Source: Mactra quadrangularis
Taxonomy: Eukaryota > Mollusca > Bivalvia > Venerida > Mactridae
Direction of reading: 5' to 3'
DNA length: 64,000 nt
NCBI GenBank assembly: GCA_025267735.1
Contig: CM046307.1
Location: 186,001-250,000 of the forward strand
Below, one piece after another: positions 17,001-26,000 of the stretch. The position numbers and the translations under genes are program-made. Position 1 is the stretch's first letter; every line of letters begins with the position of its first letter. The notes beneath the pieces are model-generated. The model was not told the DNA's origin. It saw only the letters and a list, made by a program, of their open reading frames with translations, and made no database searches.

Positions 17001-20000
17001 AAACATATGTGATGAATAACAGTAAACACATCAAACTAACTTTAACTTCTAAAAATATCTCATACATGCAGATGATAGTGATCATTTATAAATGATACCT
17101 CTTTATCTGATTTTCATTCAGAAAGTGCTTTTTGTTTCTGTTTGTTTTGTTTTTTAAATTTGGTTTAATGCACTGTCAACACATACTATGGCCATTTTAC
17201 ACAAGCTATCTCACCATACTAAGCTTTCCTGGACCCTTTTTTCTGTAATTCAGTACTCACATCAAAGTGTTTTTATTTCCTTAATACCCTTAAGGAAATA
17301 CTTCAAGGTTAATAACAGAGAATATCATGCTTCTTTTATTGTCAGGAAGAAATTCAGACTTTATTTTGTTTAAAAAATAACCTATCAATCATTGATCAGT
17401 ACAATATCCCAGTAGTTATAGCTTTTTCTATATATTCATTCTCAGACTAGGAAAAAATCCATTCTGAGCTATAGTGATTTTAGAAATATGATTACAGATA
17501 AAAATGATACCTGTAACAAAAATCTTCTAGAATTGTTTTCTAAGGACACATACACAATAATGATACACAAACATATATTGGTATGTGAACAGTGATTTCA
17601 GTATGATATGATCTTTTTTATTTAGTGTGCCATTAAAACAAATCAAACAGAAATAATATTTAAGGCTGGGAACGAATACAAATTTTCATGTTCGAATATT
17701 GGTTTTTGACATTCAAATATATTCGAATATTCGTTTTTATAAAGCTAAAAAAGATTCCAAGTAGGTCAGTGCCTCATATTGCATGTCTAGTTTTGTTCAT
17801 CTGAATAAAGCCACTTCAGCTCATATTGAATTAACATTATTGTCCGTTTTTTCTCAACGGTCAAAGCTTGAATAATTTCACGGTGACTGAAAGCATTGTT
17901 TTTGTACTGGAGGCCTAATTATTATTAAAAGTATCTTGACCAAAACTTATCATATGGCATAAGAAGCTTTACTCACTCATAATACACTTTTTCGGAAACC
18001 AATGAGGATATTCTGACAATAATTTTAACAAACCCATTCACCGTGAAATTATTCATGTTTTGACAGTTGAGAAAAATGAACAATATCTGAAGTTTCAATG
18101 AATCTTGAATTGATCCTTCATGATCTGTTTATAACCAAGGTTTTGTACAGTAAATTGGGAATCATAACAAAAATTTAATTGACATGTGTTGAACAAACAT
18201 GCCAACTATAAACATGCTTCTTAAACTACATTTTAAATAGAAAATGTCTGGGGCAAAAATAAAAAGCCAATTTTTATGCTGTGAATTTCAAATAGTCGTA
18301 TTTGTTTTCAATATTTTTTATGCAGTGAATTTCGAATAGTCGTATTTGTTTTCAATATTGGAATATTCGATAACAATCCAAATATTTGAATATTTTTCCC
18401 TGCCCTAATAATACTATCCCATAATACTACTCAACAACAGCAGATTAAGTTTTTTGTTTTGTTTTTGTTGGGTTTAACGCCGTAGCAACACATTTTATAG
18501 GTCATATAACAGTGGTCAGTCAACCTACTCACTCCTACTGGAAAGGCTAAATCTCTGGATTTAGCTGTTAACCAACTACTAAGCGCATGCTTTCCGTCAG
18601 AGACTGACGACTGCCCAACATAATTAAAAATCATTGGTAGGAGGGATTATGACCGTAGAAATAATTTCATGACTAAGCTCCATGGAAGTATGCCACGCCT
18701 GGGAATCGAACCCACGACCCCTTGATCAGTAGACTTGCGTGCTACCAACTGAGCTAGCCGGGTTAGAATAGAATGACAAATTGGCAGATCAAAATAGATT
18801 GTTGCGGTCATTTTGACTTTGAGGAGGATATTTGTATTTAAGTGTTTAAGTAGTGATTATTTATAACTGTTGTTGAGAGCTGGTCATCAAGCGAGGGGGG
18901 GTCCAAAGGGATGCCAGTAAAAAGTAAAATAATTCTCCTAACTACCAAAACGTACAAATATATAAACTATAATATAAAATAAAGTACTAGTCTACCTGCA
19001 GTTATTACAATAGAACATTTTGCATCTAAAATACGATCTGACAATGAATCAGCTGAAAATCCACCAAACTAAAAAAAAAAAAAAAAATTCAAAATAATAA
19101 TAGTCGTTTTACCTTTTCAATATTACATACATATCAAAAGTAATGTAATCACATGGAATAACAAATACATAAATACATGTAAACACAGGGCAGCATACTT
19201 TTAAATCAAATGCCAGGCAAAATAGAAAACAAAAATCTTTAGTGAACTAAAAATACCCCCAAAATGGCCAAACAATTAACATTACCCCAGACCTTCCATT
19301 TCTAAATATTCATTATCTCTTCACCAATCAAACGATTATAGTGCGTACAAAAAAACAAAACACTGTTTATAATAACAATACAATGAACTAACCCTCAACG
19401 AGGGATGCCTAGGATGACTTTAAAATAAACAATTGTGATATGTATTACAAGTGTCTTAATTGTTGGTGTAATGGAAAGCATTCTACCATAACAAGCATGA
19501 TTTAAAGTGGTGGTGGTTTATCAACCATGCTAATTTTGTTAAAATGAATTACATAAATTTTATTTTCAATACTGCCTACCCCTGAAATGAATTGTCTCAA
19601 TTTTAATGTTTACCAAAACACGTTTTGTTTTTTGTAAGCACTATACCATATTATAGACAAACATACAGGTCGTATTCTAGGTCATGCATGTTTTTGTACT
19701 TTAAACAATGGAATTGCTCACTTAATAGGTGAATAAGCTATTGCATGAACAGCATTTTACTGATTTTAACAGGTCATTTTTATATGTAACATTCATTTTA
19801 AATAGTGTGTATGCACATTGTAAATTTTATATAATGATATGTTTATAAAATAAGTGTAAACTAATTAAACTATAAAACTGAAAAAAATAATACACCCCTA
19901 AATATTTGTCCATGTTTATATACGCAATGTTTATAGTGCGTACAAAAAAACAAAACACTGTTTATAATAACAATACAGTGAACTAACCCTCGACAAGGGA

Positions 20001-23000: not shown

Positions 23001-26000
23001 TAATTGTTCCATAAAATTATATTTCACAATTCTGGAAGACTATTGAGCTCAAAATCAACTTCAAAGACAGGGGATAAAGCGAAAACTATAAAAATTTGTA
23101 ATGCAGCAGTGGTACTTCAAACAGATCTTCCTTTGCTCATGTCATGGTTGTAAGCAACATACTTACTACCCTTGAAAAGGCTAAAAATTCTAGATCTCTA
23201 GAAGGATGAGTTCAATCAGAATTAGAGCACATTCTTTTGCCAGCAGCTGATGTCACAACCTACTGACCTTGCTTGTCAGACTTGTTAGAGAAAAGATAAG
23301 GAAAATTTGCAAGAAAATGTTATCAGCATGTTCAATCCAGTGAAAATTCGCGTATTTCACGCCAAAATTAAAAAATTCATTGCAAATATTCACACTCGAC
23401 CAGGTACAAACACTGATGTGGGGTAAAGTAAAAGATGATATAGATTTGCCGAAACTACTTTCGTTTTAGGCGCGAATCGTCTGAAGACGAACGTGACTGG
23501 GAACGGATCGTTTCATCGGAGTATAGGGGAGGAATCGTCTTGTACTTATGTCGAAAATAACTATTTAAACTAGTGTACCCACTTTTATTTCCTCATACCC
23601 ACATTTTTCAACATTGATGGGTACAATACCCACTCTAAAAAAAGTCACTGAACATGCTGGTTATGTTACTTAGGGCAACAAAACCTGTTATTAAATCACA
23701 AAATTTATATTACATTTTATGACTTCTAGCTCCCTATGACAAGTTTCTTTGCAGAAATAAAGCTAGAAAGAAAATATTTGAATAAAATACTGTTTGAAGC
23801 AATTTTGAGTAGCAAATGACAAACATCGCATGACTGACAGTACACGATAGACAAAGAGCAATAAAAAGCTCATTTTGAACATGAACGGTTCTGACAAGCT
23901 AAAAATGTAAAATGTATTACACAAATATTTACACTAAATGTTTAGAATAAAACAGAACACTGGTACTAAGACTACACATGCTGTAAATAGAATCTACCTG
24001 CTGTTATAAGTATATTTGGTTGAGCTCCTATCAACCTCTCAGTTAATGATGACACAGAGAAACCAGCAAACTGTAAACAATATTATACTACATAAAACTA
24101 ACTTACTAAATTTTGCTAAAGCACTCCCACTTTAAACTTTTCGAAAATTGAAATAAATGTTTTCATCATTTTGTAACCATAAGCAAAACAGTTTACAGGG
24201 CTCGACTCTTACAGTGTATCGGGATCCCTGAAAATTGCCATGAATTGTCTACTACAATTAGTGACAGTATTCAAGATTTTTACTTTTAATGGAGGAATCT
24301 ATGAGTAACTGACTTAGGATTCCTTTGGGATCCCTGGTAAAACAGTTAGAGTCAAACCTTGCATTTTGCAGTTTTTGTAATCAGGACCCCAAATAGAACA
24401 TTCAAAATATATTTTACTAAAGTGTAGTCAGTGGCAATGACCAATGGTTTTTAAAAGAGGATACTTTTAGGGTAGAGAATCAAATAAAAAATGTTCCATC
24501 AAAACCCAAGGGTAGGAATATCAGGGTTTTGATAAATCAACTTTGAAAATATAGGAATTTTCAAAGCCAGAATATAGGAAAATATAGGAAATATAAATAA
24601 CAAACAAAATGAGAGTTTAACCTCCTCCTCCACTCTCCATCTCCACTTTTATTGCTTTCTTTTTATTACTATATAAACAATGAACATTTTAAACAACATC
24701 ATAATTAACAAAATAATACTCTCATCACAAAGATAGCAAGAACATACATGCAAAATACATGACTAGATTTCCAGTGCAAATGATGACATTGAGAATAATA
24801 CTCAACACAAATGAGACAAAAGATTTTAGTTTTAGTAATGATTACCGGTAATCAAATATGCTGTGCTTCATTACTAAAAGAAATTTAAGAATCTTAAGAT
24901 ATGAAAAATCACATTTAAAATCGAACTGAAGGACAGCTTTAGTCTACACCCGTAGAGCTGTGGATATGGATGCATTAATGCATAGTGCACATCATGAACA
25001 TTGCCTTTGTTCAAATAAGATTAACAGTTATAGTAATTCAAACTACAAGAACAAACCACAATGATAAACAATACACATATAGGGAAAAGCAATAATCATA
25101 AGTCAACCAGAATCATAAGTAAAACTATGTGCTTATCTTTAAGTTAAGACAGTCAATCAGAAATCTAGCTCTTATAATGTGAAGAAGTTACTTTTTGTCA
25201 CTCTTAGACTTCTTAGGGTAAACAGAACCAGAGTAATTGTTTGTGCTGTTCTGAAGATTTCATTTTAAGTAGTTCACTTCTAGCAGTACCCAGCTCCATT
25301 GACTGATTGTCAAGCTGATCATTTATACCCATTTCAATTTCATTCGTGTTCTCAGGGGAAGTCTTGTTGACAACATCTAATGGCAGGAACCTTCTCAGCA
25401 ATGTCTTAGTAAAGTTCACCATTCTGCTGTGTAAAACATGTATCAATGGTGCTTCACTCTGAAATTCAGTCAAAAAGTATTCTAACAAAGGAATCATTGA
25501 GAGCAGAAACTTGATCTTAAATTCATATCTGTTGATCTAATGGCTTCTCTGATCAGTTTGAAGTTCATACTTTTGGGGATTTTTTTTTAATCCTTTTCAA
25601 GCTGAGTTACATATGCAACTATACCAGACCATTGTTCAATTATTCTCTCAAGAGCTGGACCAATACTAAGCCAGCGGACTTGTGAGTGTTTGATAAATAA
25701 CTCTTCTTTGAGAACAAGGTCTAGCTGAACTTGTCTAGTCCTCTCGTCGCCCAGCAGAAAGTTTGAAAAGTCTAAATAATGCCAAGGCAAAGTCTTCCAC
25801 CTTTTGACCATATTCTGCTACACCTTTATAGAAAGCATTGTGCATTGTGTGAAGATTACAAAGATTACAAGTGTCTACATCAACAAAGCCTTTCCAACCT
25901 GGGGTGGATTCATGCATTGGTTTTGACAGCTCCCTAGATATGGGTTTATTGACGTTTGGGCCATCACTTCCTAGTGCAACTAATCTATCAAGTGGAAAAC

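What the first reader, a model, noticed from the sequence alone, without database searches (positions are those of the whole stretch)
18996..24070. Mutually exclusive, frame-locked exon pair in acetyl-CoA synthetase
Two 73-nt exons (24070-23998 and 19068-18996) encode alternative versions of the same 24-residue segment (FAGFSVSSLTER... and FGGFSADSLSDR...). Both have consensus acceptors, nearly identical donors (GCAG|GTAGAY) and matching phases. Seen directly: including both gives a TGA after six codons of 4b, and skipping both gives a TAA nine codons into exon 5, so exactly one must be used. The segment lies at the FGG/FAG tract that, from bacterial Acs structures, borders the CoA pocket. The isoforms could therefore differ in CoA or acyl handling or in partner binding. 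I do not know of this exon pair being described.
Basis: partly seen in the sequence, partly recalled or inferred. Interest (0 to 1): 0.88.

Follow-up and report, generated by a model that had tools for sequence, protein, structure and literature searches.

The report
Ancient alternative exon pair in ACSS2
A clam's gene for the acetate-activating enzyme ACSS2 carries two interchangeable versions of one small exon, of which each message is predicted to use exactly one, and variant segments of the same kind in other clams, a limpet, an abalone and octopuses suggest a likely ancient molluscan switch between two enzyme forms.

Summary
The minus strand holds a complete 15-exon ACSS2 gene (682 aa). 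Exons 4a (24070-23998) and 4b (19068-18996) are both 73 nt with the same phases. Either one gives a full protein; both or neither gives an early stop. A second, inverted copy of the region 8 Mb away has the same pair in the same order: 32 coding differences, none changing an amino acid, against 5.65% in introns. Neither exon is a stray paralogue.

The main new result: 4a-type segments occur in Ruditapes, Octopus, Argonauta, Patella, Haliotis and Gigantopelta. All six listed mollusc entries labelled "isoform" carry one; none of 26 unlabelled single-version entries does. A Tegillarca gene model holds both versions in tandem, in the same order. In five of eight variant-versus-canonical pairs, exon 4 is less alike than any other window compared. 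Lineage-by-lineage duplication fits worse than one old duplication (AU p 0.021).

Mutual exclusivity in this clam is inferred; no RNA reads were available. The exchanged unit is a predicted loop-helix-strand just before the CoA-binding arginine. My searches found no report of this pair.

The parts
23998..24070 (-). exon 4a, 73 nt, variant version (FAGFSVSSLTERLIGAQPNILITA)
   Evidence: splice sites, phase 0/1, 38.5-bit match to a profile without the clam's own sequences
18996..19068 (-). exon 4b, 73 nt, canonical version (FGGFSADSLSDRILDAKCSIVITA)
   Evidence: splice sites, phase 0/1, 54.9-bit match to the same profile
28042..28145 (-). exon 3, upstream partner of either version
16868..16943 (-). 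exon 5, downstream partner; carries the Arg aligned with Salmonella Acs Arg191 (CoA phosphates)
19069..23997 (-). 4,929-nt intron between 4a and 4b
   Evidence: 230 of 3,853 aligned bases differ in the second copy
30899..31218 (-). exon 1 (start codon at 31218)
29138..29229 (-). exon 2
15771..16001 (-). exon 6
14754..14946 (-). exon 7 (TSGSTGKPKG, TADVGWITGH)
13941..14074 (-). exon 8
13311..13443 (-). exon 9 (VGEPINPEAW, DTFWQTET)
12947..13003 (-). exon 10
11747..11827 (-). exon 11
10536..10644 (-). exon 12
10045..10244 (-). exon 13
9505..9550 (-). exon 14
8037..8236 (-). exon 15 (PKTRSGKIMRR, stop codon)

Best explanation
This clam ACSS2 gene holds two homologous 73-base versions of exon 4 that are predicted to be spliced one at a time, giving two enzymes that likely differ in how they handle CoA, are regulated or bind partners, through a switch that is likely old within molluscs. 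Shown: the two exons, their shared phases and lengths, and the reading-frame lock (using both or neither stops early). Shown: the same pair in a second copy of the locus. Shown: 4a-type segments in ACSS2 entries from clams, cephalopods, a limpet, an abalone and Gigantopelta. Inferred: splicing picks one exon per message, and joint inclusion or skipping is cleared by nonsense-mediated decay; the 4.9-kb spacer argues against simple crowding of splice sites, so weak matched donors (GTAGAY) under trans-acting control are the likeliest selector. Inferred: both forms are acetate-CoA ligases with the same acetate, ATP and CoA-phosphate contacts. They differ in one helix-strand unit between the FxGFS loop and the CoA-phosphate arginine, most likely adjusting the CoA step, domain closure or a partner surface rather than the acyl choice.
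For: Frame lock and matched phases. Both exons in both copies, 0 amino-acid differences against 32 coding base differences; chance of no amino-acid change in both exons at the local intron rate 0.0033. Six of six isoform-labelled mollusc entries in the list have 4a-type segments; by identity to the window exons alone, 5 of 6 match 4a at least as well as 4b against 0 of 26 unlabelled single-version entries. Tegillarca P0035 carries both in tandem, variant first. Exon 4 is less alike than any of 548 other windows in 5 of 8 variant/canonical pairs and in none of 7 like-with-like pairs. AU test 0.021 against lineage-by-lineage duplication, 0.0082-0.0432 in 6 of 6 jackknife runs. Same helix-strand module predicted for a 4a-type and a 4b-type protein.
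Against: No RNA reads, so exclusivity and 4a use in this clam are not shown. The Octopus, Argonauta and P0003 pairs do not have exon 4 as the lowest window (17, 21 and 43 of 548 at or below). Leave-lineage-out classing fails for Ruditapes and Gigantopelta. The free tree puts Patella and Gigantopelta segments among canonical ones, and 25 sites are few. 24 of 179 sequences, many of them arthropods, score higher on the 4a profile, so part of the 4a signature is not special to molluscs. P(no amino-acid change) is only about 0.06 for each exon alone. No functional data bear on the enzyme difference.
Confidence: 0.74

Rival explanations
1. Only 4b makes working enzyme; 4a is a relic or poison exon, rarely used, that is carried along or lowers output when included.
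For: 4b is closer to canonical ACSS2; 4a lacks an Asp kept in 169 of 171 canonical rows; no RNA evidence for 4a in this clam.
Against: No amino-acid change in 4a between two copies whose introns differ by 5.65%. 4a alone keeps the frame, so it is no poison exon. 4a-type segments are in database isoforms of six other molluscs, and in P0003, a 685-codon ORF on a 2,300-nt contig that is probably a spliced message. Octopus and Argonauta 4a segments are 92% alike.
Confidence: 0.1
2. The exon pair is real, but the duplication arose several times in separate mollusc lineages, and the shared 4a traits are convergent or come from relaxed constraint.
For: 4a-type segments differ a lot among lineages; Gigantopelta and Patella 4a fall among canonical segments in the free tree; 2 of 9 fail leave-lineage-out; labels were set after seeing the segments; repeated origin of a mollusc/annelid/helminth exon pair is described for mrp-1 (PMC7434440, passage).
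Against: AU p 0.021, and 0.0082-0.0432 in 6 jackknife runs; 7 of 9 class correctly with their lineage left out; same order, variant first, in the window and in Tegillarca.
Confidence: 0.2
3. One copy belongs to a separate ACSS paralogue placed here by misassembly.
For: The genome holds an inverted second copy of the region and further ACS-like loci on C12 and C9.
Against: Both copies hold 3-4a-4b-5 in order and are collinear over the 74 kb compared. The C12 and C9 loci read differently at this place (HSLVFGGFASKELSTRIEHAKV; HSVVFAGFSAEALAGRIIDG). Tegillarca shows the same tandem order.
Confidence: 0.03

Closest known systems
coq-2 exons 6a/6e in rhodoquinone-making animals (PMC7434440; passages seen)
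   Same: Equal-length mutually exclusive exons that remodel the core of a metabolic enzyme, in molluscs and annelids among others; one version canonical, one restricted to some animals.
   Different: Another enzyme and pathway; the coq-2 switch has RNA and genetic proof, this one has none yet; the exon here is 73 nt, not 134.
ACSL1/ACSL6 fatty-acid gate-domain exon pair (PMC1543647; passages seen)
   Same: Same enzyme superfamily (acyl-CoA synthetases); a short alternative-exon motif near the active site.
   Different: Long-chain enzymes; the exon encodes the gate motif. Here the corresponding short-chain motif (TADVGW) is in shared exon 7, and the swapped exon is another part of the protein.
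OGDH exons 4a/4b (PMC7969005; passages seen)
   Same: Ancient exon duplication in a metabolic enzyme giving mutually exclusive exons.
   Different: OGDH exclusivity is enforced by branch points close to the upstream donor in a short intron; here the spacer is 4,929 nt. OGDH isoforms differ in Ca2+ binding; no such site is known here.
PKM exons 9/10 (recalled; only a title listing seen)
   Same: Metabolic enzyme with an alternative exon pair that alters regulation rather than chemistry.
   Different: Different enzyme and lineage.

Membership tests
Mutually exclusive homologous exon pair | Adjacent exons in one gene with sequence homology | tested here: met
   Both match a profile built without them; 12 of 24 residues shared
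Mutually exclusive homologous exon pair | Same length and reading phases | tested here: met
   73 nt each, phase 0 to 1
Mutually exclusive homologous exon pair | Joint inclusion or skipping breaks the frame | tested here: met
   stops at codons 203 and 182
Mutually exclusive homologous exon pair | RNA shows one or the other, not both | not testable with these tools
   no RNA reads; isoform labels in six other molluscs only hint at it
Exclusivity by splice-site crowding (OGDH type) | Branch point within about 50 nt of the upstream donor | tested here: inconclusive
   branch points not mapped; a 4,929-nt spacer makes it unlikely
Exclusivity by competing intron RNA structures | Conserved complementary intron segments around the pair | tested here: inconclusive
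   no clear docking site among inverted repeats; the two copies are too alike to show covariation
ACSS2 / AcsA acetate-CoA ligase | Scores above the family cut-off with either exon | tested here: met
   TIGR02188 901.6 (4a) and 913.9 (4b) bits, cut-off 724.95
ACSL gate-domain exon pair | Alternative exon encodes the gate motif | tested here: not met
   the short-chain gate-like motif TADVGW is in exon 7, not in exon 4
coq-2-like anaerobic splice switch | Variant exon rises in low oxygen | not testable with these tools
   no expression data

The most novel reading that the evidence does not exclude
A metabolic splice switch: since the molluscan ancestor, and perhaps the common ancestor with annelids, ACSS2 has had a second exon-4 form used in the low-oxygen and recovery cycle, when acetate made by anaerobic mitochondria must be reactivated, acting alongside the coq-2 exon switch as one coordinated splicing programme.
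Probability: 0.15. Interest if true: 0.9.

Novelty: new member of a known kind. Interest (0 to 1): 0.7.

Why it matters
ACSS2 turns acetate into acetyl-CoA for lipid synthesis and, in the nucleus, for histone acetylation (recalled). A splice switch in its core that is shared by clams, a limpet, an abalone and octopuses would mean these animals run two ACSS2 enzymes from one gene. It poses a precise test: which tissue or oxygen state uses 4a, and what the helix swap does. It would also add a second enzyme, besides COQ-2, in which molluscs use equal-length alternative exons to retool metabolism.

Tried and rejected
A protein search with words drawn only from residues 165-206 of the 4a form had 3 candidates and 1 hit, from Cephus cinctus, so it says nothing about spread; I then searched with an alignment of 7 variant-type proteins. 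A first intron-divergence script used too strict a collinearity filter and was replaced (then 50). Intron flanks of 4a and 4b show no similarity above the 95% point of shuffles. No docking-site pattern stood out. No Rfam family reached its gathering score and ARAGORN found no tRNA gene in the window.

Literature (open-licence full texts only; titles and abstract starts of listed papers seen): ACSS2 + mutually exclusive exons, 10 papers, 8 listed, none on such a pair by title or abstract start; mutually exclusive exons + mollusc, 23 papers, 20 listed; acetyl-CoA synthetase + mutually exclusive + exon + mollus, 0; acyl-CoA synthetase + mutually exclusive exons, 15, the relevant one being the ACSL gate paper; mutually exclusive exons + octopus, 5; acetyl-coenzyme A synthetase + alternative splicing + bivalve, 0; acetyl-CoA synthetase + exon duplication, 0; a broader search, 382 papers, 10 listed. 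The human atlas of such exons does not contain 'ACSS' in its main text (PMC5740500), nor does the Manila clam splicing paper contain 'ACSS2' (PMC9803972). 'Undescribed' is limited to these.
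Full report
What is there. The minus strand of the window carries a whole ACSS2 gene. I placed 15 exons by motif matches and splice-site joins: 31218 to 8037, 682 residues with either version of exon 4. NCBIfam calls both forms acetate-CoA ligase above the TIGR02188 cut-off, 901.6 bits with 4a and 913.9 with 4b, cut-off 724.95. The best hit in the protein search is ACSS2 of the clam Mactra antiquata. Outside exon 4 the mean window identity is 97%, so the window is very probably from a mactrid clam.

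The exon pair. 4a and 4b are both 73 nt, enter in phase 0 and leave in phase 1. Spliced alone, each gives the full protein; together they stop at codon 203, and with neither the stop is at codon 182. In the donor list, both lack the G at +5 that 12 of the other 13 donors of this gene have; only exon 14 shares the lack. That suits regulated exons but is no proof. The exons share 12 of 24 residues and 42 of 73 bases, and a plain base-level alignment of the two is not above shuffles, so the duplication is old. A profile of exon-4 segments built without the clam's own sequences has two significant matches in the window, 54.9 bits at 4b and 38.5 at 4a, the next being 5.9. The best score over 200 Markov-shuffled sets of the three surrounding introns is 10.8.

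A second copy of the locus. The 4a DNA also occurs at C15:8264985-8265057, 99% identical. The window plus 10 kb beside it is collinear, inverted, with C15:8.225-8.306 Mb: an uncollapsed haplotype or a recent segmental duplication, I cannot tell which. That copy has the 15 exons and both versions of exon 4 in the same order. Over the coding bases, both alternative exons included, 32 of 2,122 differ and no amino acid does; 4a has 1 and 4b has 2 synonymous changes. Aligned intron bases differ at 900 of 15,918. At the local intron rate (381 of 7,191) the chance of no amino-acid change in both exons is 0.0033, about 0.06 for each alone. So both look constrained, and neither belongs to a misplaced paralogue. 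Two further ACS-like loci, on C12 and C9, read differently at this place.

Other molluscs. The protein search listed the best 120 of 7,972 hits, from 8,000 scored candidates. I count 33 entries named as molluscs among them. Six bear an isoform label (Ruditapes X2, Octopus X2, Argonauta X1, Patella X2, Haliotis X2, Gigantopelta X2), and all six have an exon-4 segment unlike the canonical one. Judged only by identity to the window's two exons, five of the six match 4a at least as well as 4b (18/15, 13/11, 13/12, 12/11, 12/8 of 25); Gigantopelta is 8/9. None of the 26 unlabelled single-version entries does. The remaining entry, P0035 of Tegillarca granosa, carries both in a row: FAGYSIESLEQRLVDSQAKILVAAE, four filler residues, then FAGFSSESLAERILDASCRAIITSD. 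This is a gene model that joined both exons, variant first, as in the window. P0003, from a source that gives no name, is a 685-codon 4a-type ORF on a contig of 2,300 nt; since the clam gene spans 23 kb, this is probably a spliced message. The database is clustered at 90% identity, so one isoform can hide behind its sister; absence of 4a in the other molluscs is not evidence.

The swap is confined to exon 4. I compared 25-residue windows from residue 61 on. Exon 4 is less alike than any of 548 other windows in five of eight variant-versus-canonical pairs: Patella X2/Lottia (0.48 against a mean of 0.87), Ruditapes X2/Mercenaria (0.60, 0.89), Haliotis X2/Lottia (0.36, 0.83), Gigantopelta X2/Lottia (0.40, 0.78) and window 4a/Mactra (0.52, 0.97). 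It is low but not lowest in Octopus X2/P0018 (17 of 548 at or below), Argonauta/P0018 (21) and P0003/Mactra (43). In the seven like-with-like pairs it is unremarkable. Over all 8,612 pairs compared, exon 4 is in the lowest 1% in 118, with Haliotis, Gigantopelta, Octopus and Patella the most frequent members. A nearest-neighbour scan of the 179 sequences puts only these in the lowest 1%: P0002, P0004, P0013, P0021, P0023, P0033, window 4a, and the annelid Ridgeia against Capitella (0.32 against 0.76, 0 of 445). The annelid case is a single gene model and stays a lead.

One origin or several. With 27 segments of 25 residues, the AU test keeps the free tree (0.85) and a single 4a clade (0.217) and rejects duplication lineage by lineage (0.021). 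Dropping one 4a group at a time gives 0.0082 to 0.0432 for the latter in 6 of 6 runs. Leave-one-out classing is right for 8 of 9 4a-type and 12 of 12 4b-type segments. Leaving out whole lineages it is right for 7 of 9 and 10 of 10, with Ruditapes and Gigantopelta failing. The free tree places Patella and Gigantopelta among canonical segments. 24 of 179 sequences score higher on the 4a than on the 4b profile: the 8 labelled rows, which were in the training set, by 14.2 bits or more, the other 16, many of them arthropods, by 13.3 or less. The labels were assigned after seeing the segments. I therefore hold a single old origin as likely, not shown.

How it likely works. Frame lock plus nonsense-mediated decay would clear wrong combinations; this is inferred. 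Crowding as in OGDH is unlikely across a 4,929-nt intron (PMC7969005, passages). No docking structure stood out. Regulation by splicing factors at two weak donors is my best guess. A link to low oxygen is a hypothesis: bivalves and annelids are described as using malate dismutation, which yields acetate (PMC10319747, passages), and coq-2 in molluscs and annelids already has such a pair (PMC7434440, passages).

Verdict. It is a new member of a known kind, mutually exclusive exon pairs, in an enzyme where the searches listed under Tried and rejected found none described.

Noticed in passing
window 24540-27124 (intron between exons 3 and 4a): A stretch of about 2.6 kb present only in the window copy; the second copy reads straight across it. 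It holds a 337-codon ORF (25735-26748, -) with no Pfam match, looking like a mobile element (inference).
   Followed up: partly
G000 C15:176001-249184 and C15:8225000-8306200: The whole region, window included, has an inverted collinear second copy on the same chromosome, the longer aligned pieces about 89-98% identical: uncollapsed haplotype or recent duplication.
   Followed up: partly
P0009 (Pinctada imbricata): This 807-residue gene model repeats the segment of exon 9 three times: another possible exon duplication, or an assembly or prediction fault.
   Followed up: no
P0078 (Ridgeia piscesae) against P0124 (Capitella teleta): In these two annelids, too, exon 4 is the least alike window of ACSS2 (0.32 against 0.76; 0 of 445); the pair may reach beyond molluscs.
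   Followed up: partly
window 35095-36345 (-): A 416-codon ORF that reads like a secreted fibrinogen-related protein (by eye; no family search run).
   Followed up: no
window 12868, 11678, 9095, 28499 and elsewhere: Several copies of a short repeat of about 250-300 bases (TATACCCCCGCTTCGAAGAAG...) lie in the introns.
   Followed up: no
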